Origin: a virus
IMG/VR virus record: IMGVR_UViG_3300030061_003397
Span: 1 to 47,503 of that record
Direction: 5' to 3' (one strand)
Length of the DNA: 47,503 nucleotides
Positions 7,506 through 22,182 of this stretch are shown here, piece after piece (the first letter of the stretch is position 1; each line of letters opens with the position of its first letter). The notes beneath the pieces are model-generated. The model did no database searches. It saw only the letters and a list, made by a program, of their open reading frames with translations, and had not been told where the DNA came from. The translations under genes were made by a program, and so were the position numbers.

Positions 7506-8116
7506 TGAAAGACTTAATAGTAGATTACATACCATTCGAAATTTCACCTGAACAGATAAACGAATCCATTTCACAAAATGGTGGTAAGTTAATAGTTCAT
7601 GGTGTACTACAAAGGGCTAACGCAAAAAACCAAAATGGTCGTGTGTATCCTCGTGAAATTTTAGAAAGAGAAAGTCAAAAGTACACAAAAGAATTTGTTG
7701 TACAAAAAAGGGCTTTAGGTGAGTTAGACCATCCTGATAGTTCTGTAGTAAATTTACAGAATGTATCCCACAATGTTACGGAAATGAATTGGGAAGGTAA
7801 TAACTTGGTTGGAACCGTTGAAGTTTTGGGAACACCAAGTGGTAATATATTGAAAGAATTATTTAAGGCTGGAATCAAACTTGGTATTAGTTCTCGTGGT
7901 ATGGGTTCCGTTGAACCTATGCAAGAAGGTGATGGACAACAAGTAGGACAAGACTTTGAATTAATTGCATTTGATTTTGTATCAAATCCTTCAACACACG
8001 GAGCTTTCTTATACCCTATGAAAGAAAGTGTTGGAAATGAAATACCAACAGGTAGAACTTGTGGTGAATATTGTAAAGTTGAAAGTATCATAAACGACAT
8101 AATCAGAGAGGGCTAA
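7505..8116 (+). CDS. 21: Prohead core maturation protease (gp21-like)
   Basis: This protease degrades the scaffold and trims capsid and internal proteins in the prohead before DNA packaging. The 203-residue protein carries RVYPREIL (46-53), GELDHPD with His76 (72-78), GISSRGMGS with candidate nucleophile Ser129/130 (127-135), and FDFVSNPSTHGAFLYPM near 155-171, as in the T4 gp21/S78-like family. Near its N-terminus is QINE20-S21, a possible self-cleavage site of the I-x-E type. I chose ATG 7505, overlapping the upstream stop, over the in-frame TTG at 7502. It is surrounded by proteins bearing possible gp21 cleavage sites. Confidence 0.93.
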   Translation: MKDLIVDYIPFEISPEQINESISQNGGKLIVHGVLQRANAKNQNGRVYPREILERESQKYTKEFVVQKRALGELDHPDSSVVNLQNVSHNVTEMNWEGNNLVGTVEVLGTPSGNILKELFKAGIKLGISSRGMGSVEPMQEGDGQQVGQDFELIAFDFVSNPSTHGAFLYPMKESVGNEIPTGRTCGEYCKVESIINDIIREG

Positions 8117-8520
8117 TGAAAAAATTAAAAGATTTAATAAAGGAAAGTAAGTATCTCGAAAGAGAATTTGGTGATGCATTACCCACATTAGATAGTGTGA
8201 TGAAACAACACCAAGATTCTAAAGAACCTATCAAAGAAATTTCAATACCTCAGTTTAAAAAATCAGATGATGTATCCTATTATTATAGAGATTGGGGAAA
8301 AATATTTGACAAGTTAGAGAGATTTGATGATTACGGCCCAAGAGAATCTGATATGTATGATTGGAATGATAGAAGTCTTTATGATAATGTAACGAAAGAA
8401 TTTCACTCACATATGGAAAAAATAGGAAAGAAACTCAATTCTGCAGTAAAGGACATGGAGAATTCTTATAAAGTATGGGATAAAATTTTAAAGAAATATC
8501 GTAGTAAAGACAGAACTTAA
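8116..8520 (+). CDS. Putative capsid-targeted internal protein with ~41-residue leader
   Basis: A 134-residue protein directly after gp21 (TAATG overlap). The N-terminus MKKLKDLIKE10-S11 has the form of a capsid-targeting sequence ending in an I-x-E site. Residues 18-33 (FGDALPTLDSVMKQHQ) match FGEPLPTLEDTMKAHQ in the protein at 12316, and both leaders end in a second site, here PIKE41-I42. The C-terminal domain differs: it is acidic/aromatic and helical (KSDDVSYYYRDWGKIFDKLE), with no known motif. I infer targeting into the prohead and removal of the leader by gp21, leaving a 93-residue mature protein. Confidence 0.55.
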   Translation: MKKLKDLIKESKYLEREFGDALPTLDSVMKQHQDSKEPIKEISIPQFKKSDDVSYYYRDWGKIFDKLERFDDYGPRESDMYDWNDRSLYDNVTKEFHSHMEKIGKKLNSAVKDMENSYKVWDKILKKYRSKDRT

Positions 8521-8792
8521 TGATTAGTTTAAAGTCATTATTAAGAAATGTCCGTGAGGCAAAACTAACTCCACCAAAAAAAGGAGTAGAGACACCATTA
8601 GATGCAAAAATACAGATTCAAGGGTATGGTGTGATGACGAGAAAACAACTACAGAAAAGTATTGAAAGGATTACATATGAGGTCTACAAAGACTCTAAAA
8701 AAGGTAATCATAAAAACATTTTAAGTTCTCTTTATAAGAGAAGTGTATTAGAAAGATTTTTGGAAACGGAAATCCAACATAGTGGAGAATAA
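8520..8792 (+). CDS. Small putative capsid-targeted protein
   Basis: A 90-residue basic protein. The ATG overlaps the stop of the previous gene (TAATG). The N-terminus MISLKSLLRNVRE13-A14 fits the shared L-K-x-L-L leader and ends in V-R-E followed by Ala, the preferred residue after T4 gp21 cuts. The remainder (PLDAKIQIQGYGVMTRKQLQ and on) is a short alpha/beta segment with a basic helix. No function is recognised. The leader and location suggest a head-interior protein. Confidence 0.5.
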   Translation: MISLKSLLRNVREAKLTPPKKGVETPLDAKIQIQGYGVMTRKQLQKSIERITYEVYKDSKKGNHKNILSSLYKRSVLERFLETEIQHSGE

Positions 8793-8794
8793 AA

Positions 8795-9067
8795 ATGGGA
8801 ATGAATCCTAAACAACAAATGGATATGGAAAATAAGTGGAGAACTTTTCGTCTTGAAGAAGAAATAAATGAAGAAGAAAAAGACGCATTTGACGCACCAA
8901 TTCCATCACAGATAAAAAGATTTATGAATAAATTCATAGATGCTTTACAAAAAGGTAATTTGAACAGAAAAAGAAAATTAGCTATTCTTGGTCAAGTGGT
9001 ATCTAATCTTGGTATAGAACCAAATGAGTTAATGAAGTATGTTCGTTTAGTTAAAAAAGGATTATAA
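8795..9067 (+). CDS. Small conserved phage protein with I-N-E site
   Basis: A 90-residue protein. Residues 20-26 (LEEEINE) form an I-N-E site identical to those that punctuate the modular protein at 9887. After it comes a conserved-looking helical unit (DAPIPSQIKRFMNKFIDALQ, then NRKRKLAILGQVVSNLGIEP) which I think recurs in marine T4-like phages as a hypothetical protein. Start at ATG 8795 follows GGAGAATAAA. Function unknown; head cargo is possible. Confidence 0.5.
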   Translation: MGMNPKQQMDMENKWRTFRLEEEINEEEKDAFDAPIPSQIKRFMNKFIDALQKGNLNRKRKLAILGQVVSNLGIEPNELMKYVRLVKKGL

Positions 9068-9068
9068 G

Positions 9069-9815
9069 TTGCCAGCTAAATCCCAACAACAACAGAAGTT
9101 TATGGGATTGGTACATGCCTACAAGAAAGGTGAAGTACCAGCTAGTAAGGTTAGTAAGGCCGTAAAAGACGCAGCAAAGTCAATGAGTAAGAAGTCCGTT
9201 AAGAAATACGCTAAAACAGACCACGATGACTTACCTAAAAGGGTAAAGGAAAGTAAAACCTCTAACATGATGAAAGCTATTCGTAAACACGGAACTGCAG
9301 GACCTTGGAGTATTATTGTAAGTAAAAATAATAAAGTAGTAACACGAGTATCTGTAAAGATGTTGAAAGAGATTCCAGCATACTTAATTTCTTTGAGAAA
9401 AAAGTATCCAAATCATAAGTTTGGTATAGAAGCCAAAAGTGGTAGAATAGCCTATAGAGAAGAAAAAAAAGGATGTGTATGTGAGGCTTGTCAAAAAGGG
9501 TACAAGACTCATCCTAAAAGAAAAACCAAAATTATGTTTGGTAAGAGATATAGAAATTGTATTAAAGCAGAAGCTATATCCGATAAGATGTCAGTTATCA
9601 TGACCAAGTTAGCCAAATCATTAGGTGTAAAATCAGTAGTGGATATGGCAACTGGTAGTGGAAGTCTAAGTTACTTCCTCGATGATAAGATGGAAGCAAA
9701 AAAATTAGCTATGATGTTAAAGAAAACATTTAAAAGAGTAAGAATTATACCTTTGGATAAATCAAAAGGTGATACAGCCAACTTTGTAGTTGCAGCTGAT
9801 ATGATTGGATTATAA
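9069..9815 (+). CDS. DUF3008-like modular protein
   Basis: A 248-residue basic protein starting at TTG 9069 (AAGGA about 8 bases upstream). The N-terminal block (PAKSQQQQKFMGLVHAYKKG, then KVSKAVKDAAKSMSKKSVKK) is the DUF3008-type module of T4-like phages. A boundary RVKE61-S62 resembles a gp21 site. Further modules follow: an alpha/beta unit GTAGPWSIIVSKNNKVV (75-91), a Cys-containing unit CVCEAC with KTKIMFGKRYRNCIKAE, then a small unit around MATGSGSLSYFLDDKMEAKK that looks like an alpha/beta ferredoxin-type fold. The last unit contains the words ATGSGS but no full methyltransferase motif set, so I do not call it one. It is a mosaic of small phage modules. Confidence 0.55.
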   Translation: MPAKSQQQQKFMGLVHAYKKGEVPASKVSKAVKDAAKSMSKKSVKKYAKTDHDDLPKRVKESKTSNMMKAIRKHGTAGPWSIIVSKNNKVVTRVSVKMLKEIPAYLISLRKKYPNHKFGIEAKSGRIAYREEKKGCVCEACQKGYKTHPKRKTKIMFGKRYRNCIKAEAISDKMSVIMTKLAKSLGVKSVVDMATGSGSLSYFLDDKMEAKKLAMMLKKTFKRVRIIPLDKSKGDTANFVVAADMIGL

Positions 9816-9823
9816 TGAGTACC

Positions 9824-9868
9824 CACCACACATGACCATATAGTGGTGAAGAACACCCAGTTTGGGTG
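9824..9868 (+). promoter_or_regulatory. Two tandem hairpins before the modular polyprotein gene
   Basis: CACCAC (9824-9829) pairs with GTGGTG (9843-9848), and CACCCA (9854-9859) pairs with TGGGTG (9863-9868) with a 3-base loop. They sit between the stop at 9815 and the preferred ATG at 9887. No T-tract follows, so they are not intrinsic terminators; an RNA processing or translational control role is possible. The frame of the downstream gene is open through both stems from about 9836. Confidence 0.35.
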
Positions 9869-9886
9869 AAACATGAGGAAGAACCT

Positions 9887-12316
9887 ATGGACGATTATAA
9901 TAAAAGAATGAAGGAGTGGATAACCAACATGGTTAGAGAAGAACTCCGTGAGGATGAGGAATGGTGGAATAAAAAGTCAGCTGCCCAACAGCAGGACTAC
10001 ATCAGACAACATCCACAATCTCAAAAGGCCATAGATGCTAAAAAAGAAAAAGAGGATGATAAATCAAAGGGAAAAGTATCAGAAAAACCAGGAGGAGCTT
10101 CCCATATAAAATCAACTGGTGGTAATAATGTATTACTTGCAAAAGGTACAAGAGAACATATAGCTAGACACAACAAACCAGGTGAAGGTTCTGTTTTCAG
10201 CGATAAAATTAGTATAGATGATGTTCAAGGTGCTATAGGTGAAATACCTGAAGAATTTTATGAAAAGGGTGGTGGAGTACATACCACAACAGTTCCAAAT
10301 GCTGGATTTAATTTAGTACAAAAGGCTTCTGATATTGAAAAGAACCATCCAAACGCGAAAAAAATTAAAGTTAAGAAACAGATTGGATATGATAGAGAAA
10401 AAAATAAACCAATTATGAAAGAAGTTGATGCTTATATTATTGATGCTGACAAAGAAGAATTTTCAACCGACCAATTAAATGTAATAGTTAGACCATCCAA
10501 TTCAGATTTTATGGATGATGAGTTAAAAAGTGATTCTGATGTTCAACAAGATTTAAAAGATGGGAAATCACATTCTGTACTTACTTCATTTCCTGGTGAC
10601 CCGGATGTTCCACCAGCTCAAAATTGGGAAGAAAGTGGTCATGCGATAATTATACCAAATGGTGGTAAAGATGCTGATAAATCAAATTGGGTTACAGAAT
10701 CCGTTGAGGAAACAAAGAAACGAGACTATAAAGCCGAATACAAGAAATTTCAATCTTCTACAAAGGCCAAAAAGTATAGAGCAGAATTAAATAAGTACAA
10801 TCGTAAGAAAGGTACTTATGGAAATGGTGATGGTAAAGATGCATCACACAAAGGGGGAAAGATAGTGGGATTCGAAGCACAATCTAAAAATAGAGGTAGA
10901 GCCGAAAAGAGTAGGTTAAAGAAAGAATCCTTTAAAGAAAATAAGGATAAGGTTAAAAAGTATCTCATTAGTAAAGGTGATACCGAAAAGGATGCTACAG
11001 AAAAACTTAAATACTATGATTACATCAAAAAAACCTACAAGGGTATAACCCCAGCAAGAATGGCAACAATAATGGGTCATCTAGCAAAGATGGAATCCGT
11101 AAATGAACGCACAAAGATGAGACCACAAGTCAAAAAACTTTTAAAACAAAAGGGATACAATCCTATTTTTGGTGCGATAGATAATTCCAAACGACAATTA
11201 AAACAGATGAGATACTCACGAGGTGAAATACAAGATACATTGATTAGTATGTTTGGTGATGAAGACCCAAAAATACTACAAAAAATTAAAGAATCTATAA
11301 ATGAGAAGAAAGGAGATTTCCTTGATTCTCTGTTTCCAAAATCAAAAGTCGATAAGGCAGTTAAGATAGCTCAATCAATGGGTGGTGATATGACTGGAGC
11401 AGTCAAGAAGATTGAGAAGTATTTCAAGGGAATATCATTACATTCCAAAGTTAAAGATGCACTTCAACAAGCTAATGAATCCATAAATGAAGAAATGTAT
11501 TTCGACCCTAAAAGTGAATTTAAGAAATATATGGATAAAGTTTTTAAACAATCCAAAATAAAAGTGATAAAATTTAATCGTATGAAACAAAGTTTTCATA
11601 ATGGTGCTTGGGGTGGATTCTATACAGTTAAGTCAAGTAATAAAGTAGACATAGGTGGTAAACCAGTCAAAAGAGGTTCAGCTGTTCTACCAGTATACAT
11701 TAGTAGAGTAGGTGAAATTGAGTTGGGAGTTAAAGCCGGTGGTTTTCATATAGGTAAAGTTGGTAGTTCACAAGTGGTAAAGAACCTAAAAGATTTTAAG
11801 AAAGGTGATTTAGATGAATCCGTAAATGAAGATGTATACGCTATCGTGGATAAATTCAACCAAAAGAAACAAGATTATGACCAAGTCTATTTCAAGGACA
11901 ATAACTTAAATAAAGTTAAGAAACATATGAAGAAGATGGGTAAGAAATATGGAAAAATGAATCTTATAAAAGTTAAAACCAATGGTAAGATGAATTTGGT
12001 AGAATCTGTTTCTAAGTCACAAGCTCAAGAAATAATGAGACAATTGGGTGGTAGAAAATTTGAAATGTTGATGGGTGTGAAATCTAAGGGTGTTGGTAAG
12101 GATGGATTGATTCTACACATTGGAAAAAACCCAAAAAGGATTTCTCATATAATTATTGATATCGATAGAGGAAAAGATTTATACAACTTGACATTTGGAA
12201 AGGTATACAAGTATCAATGGAAAGTTACTAAGAAACTCAAAGGTATATATGTAGACCAATTACATGATATGATTGAAAAGTATACTGGAAACCTTACTAC
12301 ATTTAGGAGTAGATAA
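9887..12316 (+). CDS. Modular polyprotein-like protein with repeated ES[VI]NE junctions
   Basis: A ~809-residue protein from ATG 9887, preceded by GAGGAAG at 5 bases; an in-frame GTG at 9866 would add 7 residues. Counting from 9866, ES[VI]NE occurs at residues 410-414, 476-480, 538-542 and 651-655, with variants ESVEE at 278-282 and ESVSK at 713-717. Each junction ends in V-N-E or I-N-E, the L/I-x-E form cut by T4-type prohead protease. Between them lie unrelated small modules: a long N-terminal acidic domain with an EWWNKKSAAQQQDYI opening, a degenerate HNH-like unit (DGKDASHKGGKIV), a unit with PKSKVDKAVKIAQSMGG, a beta unit (NGAWGGFYTVKSSNKVDIGG), and a C-terminal unit with IMRQLGGRKFEMLMG. 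I infer a head-cargo polyprotein. The enzymatic roles are unknown. Confidence 0.6.
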   Translation: MDDYNKRMKEWITNMVREELREDEEWWNKKSAAQQQDYIRQHPQSQKAIDAKKEKEDDKSKGKVSEKPGGASHIKSTGGNNVLLAKGTREHIARHNKPGEGSVFSDKISIDDVQGAIGEIPEEFYEKGGGVHTTTVPNAGFNLVQKASDIEKNHPNAKKIKVKKQIGYDREKNKPIMKEVDAYIIDADKEEFSTDQLNVIVRPSNSDFMDDELKSDSDVQQDLKDGKSHSVLTSFPGDPDVPPAQNWEESGHAIIIPNGGKDADKSNWVTESVEETKKRDYKAEYKKFQSSTKAKKYRAELNKYNRKKGTYGNGDGKDASHKGGKIVGFEAQSKNRGRAEKSRLKKESFKENKDKVKKYLISKGDTEKDATEKLKYYDYIKKTYKGITPARMATIMGHLAKMESVNERTKMRPQVKKLLKQKGYNPIFGAIDNSKRQLKQMRYSRGEIQDTLISMFGDEDPKILQKIKESINEKKGDFLDSLFPKSKVDKAVKIAQSMGGDMTGAVKKIEKYFKGISLHSKVKDALQQANESINEEMYFDPKSEFKKYMDKVFKQSKIKVIKFNRMKQSFHNGAWGGFYTVKSSNKVDIGGKPVKRGSAVLPVYISRVGEIELGVKAGGFHIGKVGSSQVVKNLKDFKKGDLDESVNEDVYAIVDKFNQKKQDYDQVYFKDNNLNKVKKHMKKMGKKYGKMNLIKVKTNGKMNLVESVSKSQAQEIMRQLGGRKFEMLMGVKSKGVGKDGLILHIGKNPKRISHIIIDIDRGKDLYNLTFGKVYKYQWKVTKKLKGIYVDQLHDMIEKYTGNLTTFRSR

Positions 12317-12837
12317 TGATTAAATTAAAAAAATTAATGACAGAATCCGTTTGGAACAGAAAGTTTGGTGAACCATTACCAACACTTGAAGATACAATGA
12401 AAGCCCATCAAAAGAAAACTATTACAGAAGGAACTCGTTGGTTGGTTGGTATTGAACAACCTAATGGTAAGATTACATCCACTTATGGTCATTACGATGG
12501 TTATCCTGAATGGGCAGGAAAACATTTAAAAAAGTATTATAACAATCCTGCAAAAGCAAAAGAATTATTAAAACTCGGTAAATCAGGAATTTCCACAATC
12601 GGCCCAAAAATAAAAGGGAATAAAGACCATTCCTTTGAAAAACCTAACAAGGGAGTTACCGTATTCTATGGTAGAGATAGAGGTGAAAAAGGTAGAATGA
12701 CGAGTAATTGGGGTAATAGAGACAAGGTAAAATTTGATAGTGGTGAGGAATACGCTTACATTTATAACCTCAAAGAAAAACAATGGTATTATAAATCACG
12801 ATACTCTAATCCACAGGATTGGACAGAGTTAAAATAA
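12316..12837 (+). CDS. Putative capsid-targeted protein, leader shared with the protein at 8116
   Basis: A 173-residue protein starting at the ATG overlapping the upstream stop. MIKLKKLMTE10-S11 is the short leader; FGEPLPTLEDTMKAHQ (17-32) matches the leader of the protein at 8116; TITE38-G39 is a second L/I-x-E site. The mature part would begin GTRWLVGIEQPNGKITSTYG, a module with HYDGYPEWAGKHLKKYY that I associate with small phage/bacterial proteins starting MGTRS. So a known free-standing module has had a 38-residue targeting leader placed in front of it. The C-terminal half contains aromatic beta strands (EYAYIYNLKEKQWYYK). Biochemical role unknown. Confidence 0.55.
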   Translation: MIKLKKLMTESVWNRKFGEPLPTLEDTMKAHQKKTITEGTRWLVGIEQPNGKITSTYGHYDGYPEWAGKHLKKYYNNPAKAKELLKLGKSGISTIGPKIKGNKDHSFEKPNKGVTVFYGRDRGEKGRMTSNWGNRDKVKFDSGEEYAYIYNLKEKQWYYKSRYSNPQDWTELK

Positions 12838-12840
12838 TAT

Positions 12841-13533
12841 ATGTTAAAACTTAAAGATTTACTGAACGAGAAAAAAGACCACGAGGGTTCCATGGCTAAA
12901 TCTCAACTTGAGAGAAGTCAAAAATACGCTATGATGATTTATAAAATCATTCAAAATGTTGATAAGGATGGTGATGGTGAGGTTGAATTTCCAGCTTGGG
13001 TACAATCAAAGTTAACTAAGTCTATGGATTATTTACAATCTGTATATAATTATTTGGATGGTAAGGATGGATTAGATGATAAGTTCCAAGATGAAGCCTC
13101 AACAACAGCTTATGTACCAGGATATCAAACACCTCTTGCTTTTAAAAAATCTACAAAATCTGCCATTGATTGGGACGATGAAGATGATGATGATGAAATA
13201 TTAGGTGGATTAAAAGATGTTAGGGGTAAAAGAGTAAAAAGATTTGGTGAGGTAAATACTTTACCATATAGTTCAAAAGAAGCAAAAATACATATAGATA
13301 ATGATATTAGAAAAATGTCAAAACATTTAGGTAAGGCTTCACAACAAGTTATAAAGATTATGATGGATGGTGTTAAGGGTGGTAAGTATGATGCTATGGA
13401 TATCACACGAGGTATTGAAACAGGCCAGTTAAACAGAACACACGAGGGAGAAAGACCCTTTATGAAAATGTTATGGAGAAAGGTTCGTGATGGGTTTAGA
13501 AGGTATTCAAAGGACAAAAAATTAAGAAAGTAG
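12841..13533 (+). CDS. Putative internal head protein with leader and GYxTPxAF motif
   Basis: A 230-residue protein. MLKLKDLLNE10-K11 is the shared leader. Residues 15-34 (EGSMAKSQLERSQKYAMMIY) plus PAWVQSKLTKSMDYLQSVYN (51-70) form a helical module I find familiar from T4-like phages. Between them is DKDGDGEVE (41-49), which fits the first nine positions of an EF-hand loop, but position 12 is Ala rather than Glu, so calcium binding is doubtful. QDE85-A86 and GYQTPLAF (94-101) repeat the motif of the protein at 6842. An Asp/Glu run (IDWDDEDDDDE) and a basic C-terminal helix follow. Probably processed by gp21 and located in the head; inferred. Confidence 0.55.
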   Translation: MLKLKDLLNEKKDHEGSMAKSQLERSQKYAMMIYKIIQNVDKDGDGEVEFPAWVQSKLTKSMDYLQSVYNYLDGKDGLDDKFQDEASTTAYVPGYQTPLAFKKSTKSAIDWDDEDDDDEILGGLKDVRGKRVKRFGEVNTLPYSSKEAKIHIDNDIRKMSKHLGKASQQVIKIMMDGVKGGKYDAMDITRGIETGQLNRTHEGERPFMKMLWRKVRDGFRRYSKDKKLRK

Positions 13534-13541
13534 ATATTTAT
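13534..13541 (+). promoter_or_regulatory. Candidate late promoter element ATATTTAT
   Basis: ATATTTAT begins at the stop of the preceding gene and lies about 20 bases before the AGGAGAG/ATG of the next gene. See the recurrent element at 5943. Confidence 0.35.
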
Positions 13542-13561: not shown

Positions 13562-14389
13562 ATGTCAAAAAAATTAAAAGATTTATTAAGTGAAGATATC
13601 ACAACTATGGGTGGTGTGGTTTCAAGACCGGCATTCACCAACTTAGATATGGGTTTTAGAACTCAAAAGTCTACTAAGTTGACTAACATTGTTGAGGATA
13701 TGTATGGTGATTCAAAACCTAAAATCAATGTAAAGGAATTTGTACAAGAAATTGGACAATACAATTCCTATGGTAATGAAATTTATCGTGAGGGTAATTT
13801 AAAAGAATTAGCGTCTAAACTTTCAAAACTTGCAGAAACAGCAAAACAGCATACCTTACAAGAAACCGAAGATTGGTTCGATAAAATCACAGTAAATCGT
13901 AACATGAAAGAATTAACTGGTCTCTCAAATCAATTTAAAAAAGTAGCTTCTGAAGCACAATCTCTCCAAGAAAGAATGTCTACTTTATATGAAGATATGG
14001 GACACATTCTTGGTCGTTATTATGAAATAAATGGTGATAAAGATGATAGTGATGAAGTAAAAGAAGAATTCAATGGTATGGTTCGTGAAGGTGAGTATGA
14101 AGAATTCTTTCAAGCAGCCATGAAAAAATTTGGTATAAGTTCACCTGATGAATTAGACGATGATAAGAAAAAAGAATTTTTTAATTATGTGGATGATAAC
14201 TATTCCGCTAAAAATGAGGGTGAAGCAGAAAATAAGAAAGCCCAAATATTAAGAAAGCAATTAGAACCATTAAGATTGAAGATAGCACAAATAGAAAATG
14301 AACCTTTTGGTGATAGAAAAACACGAGGTTTAAGGATGAAGAGGGATAAGATTAAACAACAAATTAGACAACTCACAGGAAAAGAGTAA
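13562..14389 (+). CDS. Putative capsid-targeted helical protein
   Basis: A 275-residue acidic, helical protein. MSKKLKDLLSE11-D12 is the shared leader. A central block with VNRNMKELTGLSNQFKKVAS and LYEDMGHILGRYYEI (about residues 119-160) is a module I recall as hypothetical in several T4-like phages. The C-terminal third is a Lys/Arg/Glu-rich helix (QLEPLRLKIAQIENEPFGDR). AGGAGAGACAAAATG gives a strong start. It lies upstream of bS21 and the scaffold gene. A head-interior location is inferred from the leader; no enzyme motif is visible. Confidence 0.55.
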   Translation: MSKKLKDLLSEDITTMGGVVSRPAFTNLDMGFRTQKSTKLTNIVEDMYGDSKPKINVKEFVQEIGQYNSYGNEIYREGNLKELASKLSKLAETAKQHTLQETEDWFDKITVNRNMKELTGLSNQFKKVASEAQSLQERMSTLYEDMGHILGRYYEINGDKDDSDEVKEEFNGMVREGEYEEFFQAAMKKFGISSPDELDDDKKKEFFNYVDDNYSAKNEGEAENKKAQILRKQLEPLRLKIAQIENEPFGDRKTRGLRMKRDKIKQQIRQLTGKE

Positions 14390-14423: not shown

Positions 14424-14681
14424 ATGTTAGAAGTAAAGGTTCGTAAGAACAATGTAGAACACGCACTACGAATATTAAAGCGTAAAGTAAAAGATAGTGG
14501 TTTGATGTTAGAATTAAGAGAAAGAGAATTCTATACCAAACCATCGGTTAAAAACAGAGAAAAGAGAAAACTAGCCAAAGTAAGAAATTGGATTAGACAA
14601 AGGGAAAGAAATCCTGATTGGTGTGGGGAACCACCTACACAATCACTAAAAGAAAAATATAAATTTTCTAAACAAAAATAA
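14424..14681 (+). CDS. rpsU: Ribosomal protein bS21 homologue (phage-encoded)
   Basis: An 85-residue basic protein. VKVRKNNVEHALRILKRKVK, then LMLELREREFYTKPSVKNRE, matches bacterial bS21 (E. coli: IKVRENEPFDVALRRFKR and LAEVRRREFYEKPTTERKR). bS21 sits on the 30S platform next to the anti-Shine-Dalgarno helix and assists mRNA docking during initiation. Phage copies are known in marine and other phages and probably replace host bS21 on ribosomes late in infection. After the bS21 core there is an extra tail, from about residue 53 to 85, containing NWIRQRERNPDWCGEPP, which differs from the cellular C-terminus. It lies among virion genes, consistent with late expression. Confidence 0.88.
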   Translation: MLEVKVRKNNVEHALRILKRKVKDSGLMLELREREFYTKPSVKNREKRKLAKVRNWIRQRERNPDWCGEPPTQSLKEKYKFSKQK

Positions 14682-14831: not shown

Positions 14832-16076
14832 ATGGATGACCTTTTAAAAGACGCTATAGCTGATGCTAAAGCTGTCCGTGAAACGGCACTTGCTAACGCT
14901 AAATTAGCTCTCGAAGAAGCATTCACTCCACGCATTCAATCTATGCTATCTCAGAAGATACAATCTGAAATTGAAGATGAAGATGAAGTTGCTGATGAAG
15001 TGGCTGACGAAGTCGAAGATGCAGAAGAAGGTGAACATGAAGATGCACCTGAAGCACCTGAGGCACCTGAAGTTGCTGTAGAACCTGAAGAAGGTGAAGA
15101 AGTAGCTGATATCGCTGATGAAATCGAAGATGAAGACGAAATGCACCATGAAGTTGAAGACGAAGACGAAGGATACGATGAATCCAAAGTAATCGAAATC
15201 GATGGTGTTAAGTACGCTCCAGTAGTATCTGAAGAGGAAGAAGACGAAGATGAAGGAATGCATGAAGGTGAACACGGAGAAGAAGACGAGGACGAAGGAT
15301 ATTCTGAAGACCTTGACTTAGAAGCTGTGTTAGCTGAGTTGGAAGGTGAAACTGTAACCGAAGAAGAAGACGAAGATGAAATCGCAGAAGGCGACGATAA
15401 AGAAGACGAAGATGAAATAAGTGAAAACGATGTCTCATCTGAAATCGGTGCAGCTGACAACAAGTTAAAACCTGAAGCTGGTGATTCAACTAAGATTGGA
15501 CAAGGTCCTGAAGGTGAAGGTTCTGATAAACCTGCCGGTAAGGAAGATGAAAATTCAGAAATAGTAGACGATTTGAAAGAAGATATCGAAGTTTCTGAAG
15601 ACATTGACCTTGAAGAAGTGTTAAAAGCTCTCACAGAAGAAGAAGAAGACCCTAAAGACGAGGGTGATGATGAAGAAGATGTGAAAGAAGAAGTAAACAC
15701 TCTTAAGTCCGACTTAGAAGAACATAGAAATGTAGTGAAATATCTGCGTGGAAAGTTGAATGAAGTTAATCTTCTCAACGCTAAACTTTTGTTTACTAAT
15801 AAATTATTCCGTAATTTCGGTTTAAATAATGAACAGAAGTTAAAAGTTGTGGAGACTTTCGACAGAGCAACAAACCTAAGAGAAGTCAAGTTGGTATTTT
15901 CAACTTTGGCCGAATCTTTTGGTAACAAAGTGGCTAGCAAGCCAAGTAAACCTATTAAAGAATCAAAGGGTTCAAGTTCAAAACCTGTAGCTTCAACTAA
16001 ACCAAAAACTGAAGAAGTAATTTCTGAAGGATTTGATTTAAAAGAACGCTTTCAGAAACTTGCCAAGATTCTTTAA
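14832..16076 (+). CDS. 22: Prohead core scaffolding protein (gp22-like)
   Basis: The scaffold forms the core around which the prohead shell assembles and is digested by gp21. The 414-residue protein is extremely acidic: about residues 45-290 are mostly Glu/Asp with Ala, Val and Gly. The N-terminal helix (MDDLLKDAIADAKAVRETAL) and the C-terminal region (NNEQKLKVVETFDRATNLRE then VKLVFSTLAESFG) are typical of gp22 in marine T4-like phages. Position immediately before the capsid gene agrees. The middle is longer and more acidic than T4 gp22 (269 residues). AAAGGAG lies 6-7 bases before the ATG. Confidence 0.88.
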   Translation: MDDLLKDAIADAKAVRETALANAKLALEEAFTPRIQSMLSQKIQSEIEDEDEVADEVADEVEDAEEGEHEDAPEAPEAPEVAVEPEEGEEVADIADEIEDEDEMHHEVEDEDEGYDESKVIEIDGVKYAPVVSEEEEDEDEGMHEGEHGEEDEDEGYSEDLDLEAVLAELEGETVTEEEDEDEIAEGDDKEDEDEISENDVSSEIGAADNKLKPEAGDSTKIGQGPEGEGSDKPAGKEDENSEIVDDLKEDIEVSEDIDLEEVLKALTEEEEDPKDEGDDEEDVKEEVNTLKSDLEEHRNVVKYLRGKLNEVNLLNAKLLFTNKLFRNFGLNNEQKLKVVETFDRATNLREVKLVFSTLAESFGNKVASKPSKPIKESKGSSSKPVASTKPKTEEVISEGFDLKERFQKLAKIL

Positions 16077-16109: not shown

Positions 16110-17741
16110 ATGAGTTCATTTGGAAAAATTGAAAAGCTCATGGATTCTTACGATCCTGTTCGTTCTCGTTTGGCAGAAACCCAAAAATTAGTTCAAAAGT
16201 GGGAACCCACTGGACTTCTTGAAGGTATTGAAGACAATAACAAGCAACACGGTATGGCCGTACTTCTTGAAAATCAAGCCCGTCAGTTAATTGATGAATC
16301 ATCAAAAACTGGTGGTAGTGGTTCAGAAGAATGGAGTGGTGTTGCATTACCATTGGTTCGTAGAATCTTTGGTGAGTTAGCGGCTCAAGACTTTGTTAGT
16401 GTTCAACCTATGAACCTACCAAGTGGTCTAATTTTCTATCTTGACTTCAAGTATGGAACTGCACAAACAGCGAACCATAATAAAGGTGAACATATACATG
16501 GTAACACCTCAGCTTCAAGTGATGCAAGCGGTGGTTTATATGGTGCTGGTAAATTCGGATACTCTATCAATGATAATGTATCTAGCACTATTGTAAACTC
16601 AAACATCACAGAAGCATCTGCTTCTTGGAAAGAAGTAGAATTCGAACCAGACCTATCTGCATCTATTGCTACTACAGCAGCAGACCAGATAATCAAACTG
16701 ACTGTCACAAGGTCTAATTTCATAGCAGCTGCACCTAATGCAGATTTGAACGGAATTAGAGCTTTCGAAGTTAGTGGTTCTGATATCTCAGCTCACTATC
16801 CTGCTTACTCTTATTTCGACGCAGACAATGTGTATTTCTATGTGAAATCTACAGAAGGTCGTATGGACGCAGCTGGAATTGGTGTGAAATATCACAAGCA
16901 ACCTACTGAAGCTGTCAGAGGTGATTTCGAACAAAGTACATTTACAACACCTGCACCAAATAGTGCTGATGATGTGGATATTCCTGAAATCGATATCGCA
17001 CTTAGACAGATTTCTATTGTTGCGAAAACTCGTAAACTTAAAGCAGTATGGACTCCTGAGTTAGCTCAAGACCTTAACGCTTACCATTCTGTTGACGCAG
17101 AAGCTGAATTGACTTCTATGTTAAGTGAGTACATTTCAATGGAAATTGATTTGGAAATACTTGACCTATTAAAGTCTGAAGCTAACGCTAAGACTGAGTA
17201 CTGGTCAGCAAAGGTTGGATATGAGTTTGATTCAGTAACTTCCTTATTCTCTGAAGTTTCTGGTAATTCAAATGCTTACACAAAAGGAACTTGGTTCCAA
17301 ACACTTGGAAACAAACTACAAGCTGTAAGTAACGCGATACATCAGAAGACTCTAAGAGGTGGTGCTAATTTCATTGTTGTTTCACCTGAAACTGCAACTG
17401 TAATTGAATCCATACCTGGATACGCTGCTGATACTGATGGTAACGCAACTAACACATCATACGCAATGGGTGTACAGAAAGTTGGAGCATTGAATAACAG
17501 ATATACGGTTTATAAGAACCCTTATATGTTAGAAAATGATATCCTACTTGGTTTCAGAGGAAGTAATTTCTTAGAAACTGGAGCAGTATACGCACCGTAT
17601 GTTCCGTTAATCATGACTCCTCTTGTTTACGATCCTGTTAATTTCACTCCTCGTAAGGGTGTAATGACAAGATACGCGAAGAAGATGGTAAGACCTGAAT
17701 TCTACGGAAAAGTTGTTGTCGCAGACATCAACATGGTTTAA
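16110..17741 (+). CDS. 23: Major capsid protein (gp23-like)
   Basis: A 543-residue HK97-fold shell protein. The N-terminal propeptide should be removed by gp21; QLIDE63-S64 fits the L/I-x-E rule and lies where T4 gp23 is cut (after Glu65). Downstream, VALPLVRRIFGELAAQDFVS and VQPMNLPSGLIFYLDFKYG are the T4-type capsid signature near residues 77-115. The C-terminal part has FIVVSPETATVIESIPGY and the conserved end YAPYVPLIMTPLVYDPVNF. TTGGAG precedes the ATG. Ordered and terminated as expected for a highly expressed gene: scaffold, capsid, then a strong terminator. No separate gp24 vertex gene is seen here. Confidence 0.96.
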   Translation: MSSFGKIEKLMDSYDPVRSRLAETQKLVQKWEPTGLLEGIEDNNKQHGMAVLLENQARQLIDESSKTGGSGSEEWSGVALPLVRRIFGELAAQDFVSVQPMNLPSGLIFYLDFKYGTAQTANHNKGEHIHGNTSASSDASGGLYGAGKFGYSINDNVSSTIVNSNITEASASWKEVEFEPDLSASIATTAADQIIKLTVTRSNFIAAAPNADLNGIRAFEVSGSDISAHYPAYSYFDADNVYFYVKSTEGRMDAAGIGVKYHKQPTEAVRGDFEQSTFTTPAPNSADDVDIPEIDIALRQISIVAKTRKLKAVWTPELAQDLNAYHSVDAEAELTSMLSEYISMEIDLEILDLLKSEANAKTEYWSAKVGYEFDSVTSLFSEVSGNSNAYTKGTWFQTLGNKLQAVSNAIHQKTLRGGANFIVVSPETATVIESIPGYAADTDGNATNTSYAMGVQKVGALNNRYTVYKNPYMLENDILLGFRGSNFLETGAVYAPYVPLIMTPLVYDPVNFTPRKGVMTRYAKKMVRPEFYGKVVVADINMV

Positions 17742-17777
17742 TTGAGTTTACGAACTTAATTTAATCAATCTTACATT

Positions 17778-17806
17778 AAAGGGGGAGTTTTTCTTCCCCT
17801 TTTTTG
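17778..17806 (+). terminator. Intrinsic terminator after capsid gene
   Basis: AAAGGGG (17778-17784) pairs with CCCCTTT, followed by a run of Ts ending near 17805. It lies 37 bases after the capsid stop codon and is the clearest terminator in the window. Confidence 0.85.
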
Positions 17807-17834
17807 TGCCTATTCGAGATTTCTTGTATCTTTG

Positions 17835-17842
17835 ATATTTAT
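17835..17842 (+). promoter_or_regulatory. Candidate late promoter element ATATTTAT
   Basis: ATATTTAT in the context TTTGATATTTATATTAGAA lies between the capsid terminator and the gp13-like gene, 33 bases before its ATG. It is very like the copies at 5943 and 33565, including the following AT(A/T)AGA. Confidence 0.45.
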
Positions 17843-17875
17843 ATTAGAAGTAATATATCCAATTAGGAGAATTCT

Positions 17876-19030: not shown

Positions 19031-19034
19031 ATAA

Positions 19035-19520
19035 ATGGCTGGTCGTTTTTTACCCCAAAGAGATAGAAATTTCTTAGAGAGAATCAACAAGGAGTTGGTT
19101 GGTGACCTTCGAACTGAAAACGAAGGAATAATCAATCAAAAAATTGTTATTTATAAGATTTCTGCCTATGATACCTCAACAAATATGTATGGAGAGGCCG
19201 TAGGTGGTAAAAACTTTAAACAAGGGGTTCAATTAGCGTGTATTGTAGAAGCACAAGACTTTGATTACAATACCGATGAATTTGGGCCAGATGCACAACA
19301 AGATTCTCAATTTCATATACTAAGACAGACGCTTTTAGACTTAAGTTTGACACCAGAGATTGGTGATATTGTAGAATGGAACTATGGATTTTTTGAAGTC
19401 AATGGGGTGTTAGAAAATCAATTGATTGGTGGAATGCAAGAGAATAATTGGAGTGTTACATTAAATGCACATTTATCTCGTCAATCATTTACAAACCAAA
19501 CAAGAATTAGGAGTATTTAG
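19035..19520 (+). CDS. 14: Neck protein, gp14-like
   Basis: A 161-residue protein 4 bases after the gp13-like stop. The features LTPEIGDIVEWNYGFFEVNG and VLENQLIGGM (about 116-145), and IYKISAYDTSTNMYGEAVGG (39-58), are those of gp14 neck proteins, where a P-E-x-G-D-I-x-x-W strand followed by F/Y-E-V and ENQL is conserved. With gp13 and gp15-like proteins it would form the head-tail joint. It is shorter than T4 gp14 (256 residues). Its TAG overlaps the next gene's start. Confidence 0.72.
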   Translation: MAGRFLPQRDRNFLERINKELVGDLRTENEGIINQKIVIYKISAYDTSTNMYGEAVGGKNFKQGVQLACIVEAQDFDYNTDEFGPDAQQDSQFHILRQTLLDLSLTPEIGDIVEWNYGFFEVNGVLENQLIGGMQENNWSVTLNAHLSRQSFTNQTRIRSI

Positions 19521-21043
19521 TGGCTGAAATTATAACATCACGAAAGAAACCTCAACCAAGAAGTACTCGTGGTAAACTAAATAGAGCAAGACAATATAAA
19601 GTTACTGAAGGTCAACCAAAAGACATATCAGTAACATTAATGGACATGGATAGTGCTATAATGTACTATTTTGAAAATGTTATCAAACCAACCGTATTCG
19701 AAAATGGTGAAACCGTAAAGGTTCCTACTATGTATGCATCACCAGAGAGGTGGCACTCAATACAAAAAACAGGATTTATGAGAGATTCCAAACGGCAACT
19801 TATCTTACCTGTTATAGCATTCAGAAGAACTGGTATGGAAAAAGATGATACGATAGCAGTTGATAAAATTGACCCATTAGACCCAAAATTATTTTACACA
19901 TTTGAAAGAAAATTTACTGATAATAACAGATACGATAATTTTTCAGTTCAACAAGGAATAGTTCCTCAGAGAGAATATTACAATGTTGCCGTACCTGACT
20001 ATATGGTATTGAATTATGATTTCATCATCTTTACCCATTACATAGAACAGATGAATAGATTGGTTGAGAGGATAAATTGGTCAGCTGGTAGTTATTGGGG
20101 TGAACCAGGTAAGATGAGGTTTAAAACCAACATCGAAAGTTACACAGATTCAACAGAATTAGCTGACAGAGATAGGGTTGTAAAAACAGAATTTAGTGTT
20201 AGTTTAAAAGGATACTTGATACCTGATTCATTCAATGAACTTCAAGGTCCTCATACCATGCAAAAATACTTAACTCCTAAAAAGTTAATTATTGGAGCAG
20301 AAACTGATTTAAGTGTGGCAAGTATCGTTCAAACTCCTGATGATGGTACAAATGTTACATTGACTACACAACGACAAGGTAGTGGAGCAAGTAATCTTTC
20401 CAACAAACATATTGTAAATGAAGGTAACGGAATTACCATAACAAATACTGGTATAGGATTTGATGGGGCAAATGAATTGATACAAACTTTTAGTCTTGAT
20501 GAAAGTTTTAGTCCTACTTTTGCAAATATAACCACAACTGGTAACATTACATCTGAGGGTGATATTATAGCAGTTGGTAATGTGATAGCAAAAAACTATA
20601 TAGTGAGTTCTTCGGTAACTCATATGACTCAATCATTCAGTAGTGGTTCAACCATATTTGGTGATTCGGTATCTGATACTCACCAATTTACTGGTTCGGT
20701 TAGTGTAAATGGTTCATTGGAAGTAAATGGTTCTGCTATAGGGTCAAGTGTAACAACATTCGACACTTACATCAGAAAAACATTTGTAAAAAAGGCTTCG
20801 AGTATACTTAATAACTCAACTGCTAGTTTTTCAGCCGTTACCGCGTCCGCACCAAGTGGGTTGTCATCAACTAACGAAGATGATTTTGTATTTTTTCTAA
20901 ATGGTCAATACATGGAACATGATGCATTAACAATTGAACAATCAAATGGTTCAACATTTTTACTTAAAGTGGATACCGATAGTATAGGGTACTTTTTAGA
21001 AAGTGATGATGAGATAATAGCACAAGGAAAATTTAATGCTTAA
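19520..21043 (+). CDS. 15: Tail completion/sheath stabiliser, gp15-like, with fibre-type C-terminal extension
   Basis: A 507-residue protein starting at GTG 19520. Residues about 55-265 match the gp15-like pattern: VKVPTMYASPERWHSIQ, a Leu-Pro-x-Ile strand, YDFIIFTHYIEQMNRLVERI and VVKTEFSVSLKGYLIP. T4 gp15 is a hexameric terminator at the top of the tail. After this domain the protein continues for ~240 residues into beta-rich sequence. Residues 375-393 (SGSTIFGDS to FTGS) are a fibre-cassette module repeated in the tail-fibre gene at 22489. T4 gp15 (272 residues) lacks this, so the extension may anchor collar or whisker-like structures. The end overlaps the HAD gene by 8 bases. Confidence 0.75.
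   Translation: MAEIITSRKKPQPRSTRGKLNRARQYKVTEGQPKDISVTLMDMDSAIMYYFENVIKPTVFENGETVKVPTMYASPERWHSIQKTGFMRDSKRQLILPVIAFRRTGMEKDDTIAVDKIDPLDPKLFYTFERKFTDNNRYDNFSVQQGIVPQREYYNVAVPDYMVLNYDFIIFTHYIEQMNRLVERINWSAGSYWGEPGKMRFKTNIESYTDSTELADRDRVVKTEFSVSLKGYLIPDSFNELQGPHTMQKYLTPKKLIIGAETDLSVASIVQTPDDGTNVTLTTQRQGSGASNLSNKHIVNEGNGITITNTGIGFDGANELIQTFSLDESFSPTFANITTTGNITSEGDIIAVGNVIAKNYIVSSSVTHMTQSFSSGSTIFGDSVSDTHQFTGSVSVNGSLEVNGSAIGSSVTTFDTYIRKTFVKKASSILNNSTASFSAVTASAPSGLSSTNEDDFVFFLNGQYMEHDALTIEQSNGSTFLLKVDTDSIGYFLESDDEIIAQGKFNA
20642..20698 (+). repeat. 57-bp fibre module, copy 1 (second copy 23425-23481)
   Basis: This segment of the gp15-like gene and bases 23425-23481 of the fibre gene encode nearly the same 19 residues, beginning SGSTIFGDS and ending DTHQFTGS, with silent differences. 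A weaker third relative (TILGNAVTDTHNI) is at about 27259-27300. Shared modules between a tail-completion protein and a fibre suggest recombination or a common trimeric fold. Confidence 0.7.
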
Positions 21044-21560
21044 GTTGGTAGATTTACTAACGGAGAAAAAACTTAGGGTATTTGATTTCGATGATACATT
21101 AGTTAAATCTAACTCTAAAGTATATGTGATTAATAAAGGTAAAAAGAAAACCCTAACACCTGGTCAGTTTGCAATATATAAACAAAAGTCAGGTGATGAG
21201 TTTGACTTTTCTGATTTTGATAAGGTGATTGAACCTAAACAGATTAAATCAATGTTTAAGGTATTTAAAAATATCTATAAGGCAAGTGGTAGTAGGAGAT
21301 TAACAATATTAACAGCACGGGCAGCTTATAAACCTGTAAGGCAGTTCTTAAAAGATGTCGGATTTAACGATGTTTATGTCGTTGCATTAGGAGATGCTAA
21401 CCCACAAAAGAAATCAAATTGGGTAAAGAGTCAGATAGAAAAGGGATATGATGATATATTATTCTTAGATGATTCACCAAAAAATGTAAACGCTGTAAAA
21501 AAATTAAAACAAAAATATCCAAATATTAAGATGGATGCAAGGGTGGTCAAATATGATTAA
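21036..21560 (+). CDS. HAD-superfamily phosphatase-like enzyme with capsid-targeting-like leader
   Basis: A 174-residue protein. HAD motif I is VFDFDDTLV (Asp17 nucleophile, Asp19), motif II is LTAR in the segment RRLTILTARAAYKPVRQF, motif III is probably the Lys in NPQKKSNWVK, and motif IV is ILFLDDSPKN. So all catalytic elements for phosphoryl transfer are present; the substrate is unknown. The N-terminus MLKLVDLLTE10-K11 is the leader seen on head-associated proteins near gp21, and a cut after Glu10 would leave the first HAD beta strand intact. The ATG overlaps the stop of the gp15-like gene (ATGCTTAA), with AAGGA upstream. Its end overlaps the PAP2 gene. Confidence 0.8.
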   Translation: MLKLVDLLTEKKLRVFDFDDTLVKSNSKVYVINKGKKKTLTPGQFAIYKQKSGDEFDFSDFDKVIEPKQIKSMFKVFKNIYKASGSRRLTILTARAAYKPVRQFLKDVGFNDVYVVALGDANPQKKSNWVKSQIEKGYDDILFLDDSPKNVNAVKKLKQKYPNIKMDARVVKYD

Positions 21561-22182
21561 ATTAAAAGAATTGTTAAAATTAGATGAGATGGTATTTTCT
21601 GATACTATTAAAGAAAGACACAATAAGAGGATGAAAAGAGAACTCGTTCATATTAGTGAGCCTATGGTTCCTCACAATCCACCACCAGATAATAGTAGTA
21701 AAGAAACATTAAAAGAATTACATTGGTTGTTGGACTACAATAATGGTAAAATATCAAATAGTGTTGTTATGAAAGGTGATGACATAAAAAAAGTATTTAA
21801 AAAGTATTGTGATGAAAGTAATTTAGAATATCCAAAAGAATATATTAAAGAGTTACTTAAGGATAGTGGTAAAATAATATATAAACTAAAGTATAAATAC
21901 AACAGACCACGACCATTTCAATTAGGTGAATTTTATAACATACCTGATTTCAAAATACATAATTTAGATAGTGCTAAAACTCCATCTTATCCAAGTGGTC
22001 ATTCCACACAAGGTATTTTACTTGGAAAAGTATTTGGAAAAAAATATCCACATCACAAAAAAAAGTTTATGGAGATTGGAAAAATGATAAGTAATTCGAG
22101 ATTAATGGCAAGAGCACACTATCCAAGTGATACCGAGTTTGGTGAAAAACTTGGTGAATTACTTTTCATAAACTTAAAATAA
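21553..22182 (+). CDS. PAP2-type acid phosphatase-like enzyme with capsid-targeting-like leader
   Basis: A 209-residue protein from ATG 21553, which overlaps the HAD stop (ATGATTAA); an in-frame ATG at 21535 is less likely. All three PAP2 motifs are present: K111-x6-R118-P119 (KLKYKYNRP), PSGH (147-150), and S182-R-x5-H189-x3-D193 (SRLMARAHYPSD). These histidines carry out phosphoryl transfer in class A acid phosphatases and lipid phosphatases. There is no signal peptide or membrane segment, so a soluble enzyme is expected. The N-terminus MIKLKELLKLDE12 resembles the shared leader. Substrate unknown: nucleotides, phospholipid head groups or phosphate salvage are all possible. Confidence 0.82.
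   Translation: MIKLKELLKLDEMVFSDTIKERHNKRMKRELVHISEPMVPHNPPPDNSSKETLKELHWLLDYNNGKISNSVVMKGDDIKKVFKKYCDESNLEYPKEYIKELLKDSGKIIYKLKYKYNRPRPFQLGEFYNIPDFKIHNLDSAKTPSYPSGHSTQGILLGKVFGKKYPHHKKKFMEIGKMISNSRLMARAHYPSDTEFGEKLGELLFINLK

What the first reader, a model, noticed from the sequence alone, without database searches (positions are those of the whole stretch)
8116..22182. A shared capsid-targeting-like leader on many proteins: putative head-cargo system
Seen: seven proteins begin with nearly the same 10-13 residues: MKKLKDLIKE (8116), MISLKSLLRNVRE (8520), MIKLKKLMTE (12316), MLKLKDLLNE (12841), MSKKLKDLLSE (13562), MLKLVDLLTE (21036), MIKLKELLKLDE (21553). Bodies after the leader are unrelated. 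Known: T4 internal proteins carry a ~10-residue capsid-targeting sequence (MKTYQEFIAE) removed by gp21 after L/I-x-E. Here the same length and end-point occur, the gp21 gene sits beside most of them, and the capsid protein itself has a fitting site (LIDE63-S64). Inference: this phage packages a diverse set of proteins in the head, tagged by one exchangeable leader, and delivers them with DNA.
Basis: partly seen in the sequence, partly recalled or inferred. Interest (0 to 1): 0.88.

Follow-up and report, generated by a model that had tools for sequence, protein, structure and literature searches.

The report
Plug-in cargo proteins in phage heads
Sea-water relatives of phage T4 appear to tag many different small proteins for packing into the virus head, and also string several of them into long chains with built-in cutting points that are swapped between phages like cartridges; the sequence evidence is strong, but packing, cutting and injection have not been shown in the laboratory.

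Summary
The leader is real, far above chance, and fits the T4 capsid-targeting rule (hydrophobic residues at 4, 7, 8; Glu at 10). The same pattern on a 49-kb T4 segment finds IPII, IPIII and gp24, plus one spurious hit; IPI is missed. In IMG/VR the MIKLKD form sits on 84 body clusters; 257 Gb of cellular genomes give 31 hits.

Related phages carry "cargo polyproteins": the window's 816-aa ORF (9866-12316) is a chain of small basic modules joined at (I/V/L)xE sites, mostly ES(V/I)NE. Individual modules recur behind a leader, behind a joint in another chain, or as free genes in other phages, whose N-termini fall at or within a few residues of predicted cuts. Homology breakpoints concentrate at the sites; the next residue is A, G or S in 49 of 81. 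Joint DNA is more conserved than the peptide requires.

Best reading: T4-type targeting extended to modular polyproteins cut in trans by gp21. Packaging, cutting and ejection are inferred. Two early junction tests were null or weak; leader/protease co-occurrence was inconclusive. Polyvalent phage proteins processed by a fused assemblin-like peptidase were proposed earlier (PMC5512222), so this is a variant.

The parts
7505..8116 (+). gp21-type prohead protease (Peptidase_S77); own N-terminal site EQINE|S ends at 7564
   Evidence: Pfam PF03420 1.5e-29; phrog_207 2e-53; site checked
8116..8520 (+). leader MKKLKDLIKE (cut predicted at 8145/8146), FGDALPTL spacer to PIKE (8238), then body
8520..8792 (+). 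leader MISLKSLLRNVRE (8558) plus 77-aa body
9069..9815 (+). probable second cargo polyprotein: N-terminal DUF3008 domain, VKE|S at 9251, further modules; no leader
   Evidence: PF11450 4.8e-9; the GSLSYFL module stands in another order in L003_4170
9866..12316 (+). cargo polyprotein, 816 aa from GTG (809 aa from the possible ATG at 9887). Predicted joints end at 10699 (VTE|S), 11107 (ESVNE), 11305 (ESINE), 11491 (ESINE), 11830 (ESVNE), 12004 (LVE|S)
10700..10930 (+). module C (phrog_6437); similar free gene in cyanopodovirus P-SSP2
12005..12313 (+). module A (phrog_9437); similar free genes in Ochrobactrum phage OC and Rhodobacter phage RcSpartan
12316..12837 (+). leader MIKLKKLMTE, FGEPLPTL spacer, second site TITE|G ending at 12429, then phrog_1987 body
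12841..13533 (+). leader MLKLKDLLNE (12870) plus two segments (DHEGSMAKSQLER and YSSKEAKI) found apart in relatives
13562..14389 (+). leader MSKKLKDLLSE (13594) on a conserved gene close upstream of the scaffold; possibly prohead core
   Evidence: 55 homologous ORFs among window and 82 loci, 24 of which fit the leader pattern used there
14832..16076 (+). acidic scaffold, gp22-type by position and composition (no Pfam or PHROG match), with C-terminal VISE|G ending at 16028
16110..17741 (+). gp23 major capsid protein, ARQLIDE|S ending at 16298
   Evidence: phrog_138 2.4e-72
21036..21560 (+). leader MLKLVDLLTE (21065) plus HAD/polynucleotide-kinase-like phosphatase body
   Evidence: phrog_415 6.4e-8
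21553..22182 (+). leader MIKLKELLKLDE (21588) plus PAP2 phosphatase body
   Evidence: PF01569 5.7e-10

Best explanation
This is a T4-type internal-head-protein system extended to modular polyproteins. Late in infection the phage makes many small, mostly basic proteins. Each starts with a 10-13 residue amphipathic leader that docks it in the prohead core. gp21 then cuts after the leader Glu and also after internal (I/V/L)xE sites. In the polyproteins these internal sites join several unrelated modules, so one chain yields several small proteins inside the head. DNA is packed on top, and the products leave with it into the next host, where they would act on host defence, metabolism or the cell wall. 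Because the joints share one short sequence rule, modules can be exchanged between genes and phages without breaking processing. Shown here: leader, sites, module exchange at the sites, basic charge, presence of gp21. Inferred: targeting, cutting, packaging, ejection, function in the host.
For: Leader far above chance. The pattern on a T4 segment finds IPII, IPIII and gp24 among 4 hits in 71 ORFs (annotation). Bacterial and archaeal genomes, 257 Gb: 31 stretches (complete), 10 of them where two or more ORFs match the phage loci.

Polyproteins: ESVNE heads the list of pentamers in excess in head-region over downstream proteins (57 against 0.6 expected). 81 ES(V/I)NE sites lie in 77 distinct downstream contexts. 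The next residue is A/G/S in 49 of 81 against 18.3% background, p=4.5e-17. Breakpoint fraction is 0.250 at these sites against 0.119 +/- 0.025 at random places in the same proteins (0 of 2,000); Asp and Lys controls are near random. In 11 module families chosen by me because joints had been seen in them, 121 of 173 distinct upstream contexts carry (I/L/V)xE at the joint against 14-32% at random. Free homologues start at the predicted cut (phrog_1987, exactly) or within 2-6 residues of it (modules A and C). In eight phrog_1987 proteins with different starts the Glu is invariant and homology begins right after it. 87% of 135 modules are basic against 21% of 362 downstream proteins.
Against: No virion or cleavage data. 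The first junction test was null (121 of 1,782 against 586 of 8,910 control columns) and the second weak or null; the positive design came third, and one of its own controls, E(N/T/S)(I/V/L), was high too (0.184 against 0.105). Two module families fit poorly at the joint (E 11 of 22, K 5 of 32; the K seed began inside the module). S77 on the same contig: 16 of 41 leader contigs against 4 of 16 for the Lys control, which does not separate them. The polyproteins 9069 and 9866 lack the standard leader, so how they enter the head is unclear. Some leader bodies are lysozymes or cell-wall hydrolases, which could also be tail or lysis proteins, although PMC5512222 proposes such domains as packaged injection aids.
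Confidence: 0.72

Rival explanations
1. The leader proteins and polyproteins are prohead core components: taken into the core by the leader, shredded by gp21 during maturation and mostly lost, as T4 gp67, gp68 and gp22 fragments are. They shape the head; they are not delivered.
For: 13562 carries the leader and belongs to a family conserved near the scaffold; modules are inserted in the conserved 6836-type gene; PMC9026906 says T4 core proteins are cut into several fragments.
Against: Modules vary from phage to phage and some match free genes in phages of other kinds; some leader bodies in other contigs are recognisable enzymes such as NUDIX, zeta-toxin-like kinase and RNase T-like exonuclease, and PAP2 in the window; modules are basic.
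Confidence: 0.18
2. The joints are primarily a DNA-level recombination seam (a dispersed 15-bp repeat). Modules are fused by recombination at it, and the fusion proteins work uncut.
For: Joint DNA is over-conserved: Val codon GTA 57 of 57 against 43% usage, Ser codon TCC 39 of 81 against 5%, AGY 0 of 81 against 34%; some contigs use a single version.
Against: All 70 distinct copies of GAATCNGTAAATGAA lie in open frames of 95 codons or more in the ESVNE frame, none in a longer antisense frame, though this is partly forced, because the 15-mer has stops in its other two forward frames. Joints of quite different DNA (TITE, TISE, LVE) behave alike. The A/G/S preference after the Glu is a protease-type signature.
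Confidence: 0.06
3. The leader is an ordinary amphipathic N-terminal helix (membrane or partner binding) unrelated to head packaging, and (I/V/L)xE at module edges only reflects linker composition.
For: The leader also occurs on lysozyme-like and OmpA-like proteins, and 8 of 803 ORFs far from the head genes carry it; 23 of 41 leader contigs show neither S77 nor gp23, though they are fragments.
Against: Glu against Lys contrast, recovery of T4 internal proteins and gp24, rarity in cellular genomes, next-residue preference, free N-termini at the cut.
Confidence: 0.04

Closest known systems
T4 internal proteins (IPI, IPII, IPIII, Alt) with capsid targeting sequence and gp21 processing (PMC9026906, passages read)
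   Same: About 10-residue N-terminal leader, hydrophobic residues at 4, 7 and 8, Glu at 10; L/I-x-E cut; small variable bodies; exchangeable between bodies; gp21-family protease in the same genome.
   Different: Up to five tandem leader genes in one locus (L013), many body families, and polyproteins with several internal joints. T4 gp21 cuts core proteins into several fragments, but a chain of separately encoded cargo modules did not turn up in the papers listed.
Polyvalent proteins of phages and conjugative elements (Iyer et al. 2017, PMC5512222; passages and the whole Peptidases section read)
   Same: Several unrelated domains in one chain, thought to enter the host with the DNA; compared by the authors with polyproteins. 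They already propose that a fused, C-terminal assemblin-like peptidase (the superfamily linked there to prohead proteases) processes some of them during virion assembly, and that peptidoglycan-cutting domains are packaged.
   Different: Processing there is ascribed to peptidase domains inside the same chain. Here the candidate protease is the separate gp21 acting in trans at repeated short (I/V/L)xE joints, the chains are made of small mostly unnamed basic modules, and the same modules also occur singly behind a targeting leader.
Giant-phage head proteins cut at A-x-E (SPN3US gp245, PMC10052503, passages read)
   Same: Protease of the same broad kind, cut after x-x-E, Ser favoured after the cut, several cuts in one propeptide.
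   Different: As described there, N-terminal propeptides are removed and mostly lost, leaving one mature product per gene.
P1 Dar system with N-terminal packaging signal on DarB (PMC9024508, passages read)
   Same: N-terminal signal sends a cargo protein into the head; anti-restriction cargo.
   Different: The paper found no consensus among Dar N-termini; no modular joints are mentioned in the passages seen.

Membership tests
T4-type capsid targeting sequence / internal head proteins | short N-terminal leader with hydrophobic residues at 4, 7 and 8 and Glu at 10, on otherwise different proteins | tested here: met
   77 of 1,421 ORFs against 2.55 shuffled; logo of 62 selected for this register; in the window Glu is at 10 in four, at 11, 12 and 13 in the others
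T4-type capsid targeting sequence / internal head proteins | gp21-type (S77) prohead protease in the same genome | tested here: met
   window 7505-8116, PF03420 1.5e-29
T4-type capsid targeting sequence / internal head proteins | leader found only with an S77 protease | tested here: inconclusive
   S77 in 16 of 41 leader contigs and 4 of 16 control contigs, fragments; of 14 with gp23, 12 have S77
T4-type capsid targeting sequence / internal head proteins | small basic bodies | tested here: met
   67 leader bodies, mean +3.4 and median +5.3 charges per 100 aa; downstream proteins mean -2.3
T4-type capsid targeting sequence / internal head proteins | present in the virion, leader removed after Glu | not testable with these tools
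   needs virion mass spectrometry
T4-type capsid targeting sequence / internal head proteins | ejected into the host | not testable with these tools
   needs infection experiments
Polyvalent proteins (Iyer et al. 2017) | several unrelated domains in one chain, encoded near virion genes | tested here: met
   window 9866-12316 matches two separate PHROGs; two of its modules match free phage genes and a third a segment of a phage C48C1 chain
Polyvalent proteins (Iyer et al. [quoted passage not shown]
   almost no module of the chains tested has a named Pfam or PHROG function
Polyvalent proteins (Iyer et al. 2017) | embedded peptidase (common there: about 36% carry a metallopeptidase; not universal) | tested here: inconclusive
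   no peptidase family over its Pfam cut-off in the window chain and no family at E 0.01 in six other chains; profiles can miss diverged peptidases

The most novel reading that the evidence does not exclude
A cartridge system: phage head cargo is encoded as modular polyproteins whose 15-bp joint does two jobs, as the prohead-protease cut site in the protein and as a recombination seam in the DNA. Whole effector modules can therefore be swapped in frame between genes and phages and still be released separately inside the head for injection.
Probability: 0.42. Interest if true: 0.88.

Novelty: new variant of a known kind. Interest (0 to 1): 0.74.

Why it matters
If true, an abundant group of aquatic T4-like phages carries a large, fast-changing store of injected proteins that can be listed by sequence alone: search for the leader and the joint, cut in silico, and read off the mature products. 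It gives exact predicted N-termini for mass spectrometry, explains many unannotated head-region genes as processed chains, and offers short natural tags and joints for loading proteins into phage heads.

Tried and rejected
Junction statistics were run in three designs. (all proteins; (I/L/V/F/M)xE within 6 of the aligned start in both): null, 121 of 1,782 against 586 of 8,910 control columns. It mixed in orthologues and tail repeats. (head-region proteins only, 85 clusters): weak or null, for example both sites within 4 residues 0.049 against 0.039, either 0.239 against 0.119, pentamer either 0.037 against 0.049. It failed partly because alignments run through the shared joint. (breakpoints against spanning alignments, same proteins permuted) was positive. 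The third design was chosen after the first two; searches do not depend on it, but the seeds were picked where joints had been seen, and of its 5 'free N-termini' at least one (window 12892) is a wrong start choice.

Filters: one search removed core homologues, 2 acidic proteins (added to gp22) and duplicates (409 to 341 head-region, 500 to 413 downstream). The downstream set still holds some leader and cargo genes.

Fold work: for 12316 only the best of five models was fair (mean pLDDT 69.7; the others 48-54) and its PDB search gave nothing. The 410-816 model (mean pLDDT 56.7) gave, for module A, weak matches to the T4 MotA DNA-binding domain (1kaf Z 6.4, 88 aligned, rmsd 3.9; 5jlt Z 6.3) among unrelated rows of similar Z. 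Profile comparison with T4 MotA and with PDB sequences gave nothing, so I do not claim it. BFVD gave no match at E 0.001. An alignment over the whole polyprotein misplaced fragments and was not folded.

Pfam and PHROGs name very few modules. ADP-ribosyltransferase-like bodies suspected by eye (YHFT motif) got no PHROG match and, in Pfam, only a sub-threshold Tpt1/KptA match for one (0.044).

Paper searches for phage polyproteins cut by a prohead protease, or for such leaders and joints in marine T4-like phages, showed no description in the rows listed (several lists capped at 12-20 rows; open-access library only). The nearest precedent is the assemblin-like peptidase proposal in PMC5512222, found late; it lowered my interest score from 0.76 to 0.74. 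No virion proteomics of immuto phages was seen in the rows listed.
Full report
What was checked. The window is a 47,503-base virus record with a T4-type head and tail module: terminase 2501-4075 (PF03237 8.1e-14) and portal 4085-5923 (PF07230 2.1e-70), S77 protease 7505-8116, an acidic scaffold 14832-16076 named by position (no Pfam or PHROG match), gp23 16110-17741. 8116 and 12316 share a longer start.

Leader statistics. In window plus 80 gp23-related IMG/VR loci a strict leader pattern fits 77 of 1,421 ORFs against 2.55 in shuffles. Locus L013 has five such genes in a row (5007-6634). The same pattern on T4 60-109 kb finds four of 71 ORFs: IPII, IPIII, gp24 and one cut fragment inside rnlB; IPI, whose start differs, is missed. 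PMC9026906 (passages) reports that in IPIII residues 4 and 7 govern targeting and 8 and 10 processing. The marine leader is hydrophobic at 4, 7 and 8 with Glu at 10.

Distribution. In ten contigs or genomes (the window, eight IMG/VR contigs and 150 kb of immuto) 24 of 373 ORFs within 12 kb of gp21-gp23 carry the leader against 8 of 803 elsewhere; within the gp21-gp23 interval itself it is 14 of 126 against 18 of 1,050. IMG/VR scan: MIKLKD-type leader with Glu, at least 120 stretches, 134 proteins in 84 body clusters; with Lys, 45 stretches, 38 proteins in 10 clusters. In 257 Gb of cellular genomes there are 31 stretches; 8 have open frames under 30 codons, and 10 lie where two or more ORFs match the phage loci, so probably phage contigs in bins. 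S77 is on 16 of 41 leader contigs and 4 of 16 control contigs (41 of 120 and 16 of 45 stretches were given). gp23 is on 14 of the 41, 12 of them with S77; 23 have neither. This test does not decide.

Polyproteins. The 816-aa ORF 9866-12316 matches phrog_6437 at 287-350 and phrog_9437 at 719-812, with repeated ES(V/I)NE motifs between them. In related head-region proteins ESVNE heads the list of pentamers in excess over downstream proteins (57 against 0.6 expected); the wider E(S/T/A/G)(I/V/L)(N/T/S/D/Q)E motif occurs 104 times against a shuffled mean of 3.85; downstream proteins have 65 against 7.0, some of them in cargo genes lying downstream of gp23 (seen in L004 and L007). Twenty-five head-region proteins of the nonredundant set carry two or more such sites, up to 1,052 aa and seven sites.

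Module exchange. The same body follows the leader Glu in one phage and an internal (I/V/L)xE in another. KKELGG follows MLKLKEILTE in L043, and TISE or QISE in L071 and L031. AKYKETY follows MVKLKELLTE in L004 and PLRE in L007. KDxxKAKK follows a leader in L049 and ESVNE, EVSE, IITE or NIQE elsewhere. Counting distinct upstream contexts in 11 module families, 121 of 173 have (I/L/V)xE at the joint; 14-32% is expected at random places in the same proteins. Families A, B, D, F and G fit at 11/11, 9/9, 14/14, 12/13 and 32/35; E (11/22) and K (5/32) fit poorly. The families were chosen because joints had been seen in them.

Free homologues. The phrog_1987 body of 12316 begins at G39 after TITE38. 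Cyanophage S-PM2 and SynMITS9220M01 genes start M-ATRSRIG and M-GTRSRIG, residue 2 aligning with G39. Rhodobacter phage RcSpartan_44 aligns so that its Met corresponds to 715 of the polyprotein, where the predicted cut is after E713; Ochrobactrum phage OC p058 would start near 707. Cyanophage P-SSP2's 78-aa protein would start near 276; the predicted cut is after E278. Phage C48C1 and Flavobacterium phage immuto carry chains of their own.

Cut signature. After ES(V/I)NE the next residue is A, G or S in 49 of 81 (background 18.3%, after any Glu 20.8%, after (I/L/V)(N/T/S)D 16.8%; (I/L/V)(N/T/S)E overall 36.7%, in downstream proteins 26.3%). Most gp23 and gp22 sites show the same preference. Breakpoint fraction at ES(V/I)NE is 0.250 (75 sites with alignments) against 0.119 at random; for (I/V/L)(N/T/S)E outside that motif 0.213 against 0.109 (0 of 2,000 each); Asp control 0.122 against 0.096 (202 of 2,000), Lys control 0.083 against 0.099. 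A reversed-order control, E(N/T/S)(I/V/L), was also high (0.184 against 0.105, 0 of 2,000), which I attribute to its overlap with ESV of the joint. Two earlier designs were null or weak.

Structure. For 12316 the best model has pLDDT under 50 over most of 1-37 and a mean of 88 in the block 41-50; the other four models were poor. For polyprotein residues 410-816 the five joints at 414, 480, 542, 655 and 713 all lie in stretches under 50, but 186 of 407 residues do, so this is weak.

Charge. Polyproteins carry +7.5 net charges per 100 aa, and 87% of 135 modules are basic; downstream proteins -2.3 and 21% of 362.

Joint DNA. Val is GTA in 57 of 57 (usage 43%), Ser TCC in 39 of 81 (usage 5%), never AGY (usage 34%). 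Contigs tend to use one version: same-contig Ser codon identity 0.53, between contigs 0.35. In a second set (L127 and up) Val is GTA in 25 of 26, but 5 of 35 sites use AGY. All 70 distinct copies of GAATCNGTAAATGAA lie in open frames of at least 95 codons (median 480) as ESVNE, none in a longer antisense frame; the 15-mer carries stops in its other forward frames, so the frame alone says little. Six MIKLKDILNE leaders have six different DNA codings. So the joint, unlike the leader, looks copied as DNA; recent common descent or a recombination role would both do it.

Spacer. The FGEPLPTL segment occurs in 37 distinct contexts, 36 with a site within 20 residues upstream and 30 with one within 30 downstream. 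It is perhaps a peptide released between two cuts, or a second docking element.

Mechanism and limits. The most economical reading is targeting to the prohead core by the leader, gp21 cutting at the leader and at joints, and delivery with DNA. No step beyond sequence is shown. Polyvalent proteins (PMC5512222) are the closest precedent: multi-domain, virion-packaged, and in some cases thought to be processed by a fused assemblin-like peptidase during assembly. What is new here is the trans-acting cut rule with repeated joints, the single-module leader genes built on the same rule, and the exchange of modules at it.

Noticed in passing
window 9812-9890; L003, L006, L152, L332-L367: Just upstream of the polyprotein start a short ORF M..HHT ends in TGA, and the same frame continues with PYSGEEHPVW(V/M)KHEEEP up to an NTG codon, mostly with a Shine-Dalgarno-like AGGA before it. 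All 21 distinct sequences examined, found with a pattern leaving that codon free, have TGA there. A downstream hairpin CAYCCA-GTT-TGGRTG shows a compensating change, C-G to T-A. Programmed stop read-through or a regulatory mini-ORF; undecided.
   Followed up: partly
window 14424-14681: Phage-encoded ribosomal protein S21-like gene (phrog_21469, 7.8e-11) between the leader gene 13562 and the scaffold; 59 homologous ORFs among window and 82 loci.
   Followed up: no
window 6836-7315; L013, L019, L023, L054: Cargo modules are inserted in, or added to the end of, conserved head-region genes (the AKFAV module inside 6836-type genes and at the C-terminus of the 13562-type gene in L019), mostly at (I/V/L)xE sites (9 of 12 contexts).
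   Followed up: partly
window 9069-9815; L019, L023, L033, L036, L065, L069: Several chains begin with a DUF3008-like SKxQQ(K/R)FMG domain instead of the leader; it may be another entry ticket.
   Followed up: no
L139, L191, L233: Leader followed by cell-wall hydrolase, M23 peptidase plus phage lysozyme, or lysozyme domains; PMC5512222 proposes such domains as packaged aids to DNA injection.
   Followed up: no
window 12005-12313: Predicted fold of the last module weakly resembles the T4 MotA DNA-binding domain, without sequence support.
   Followed up: partly
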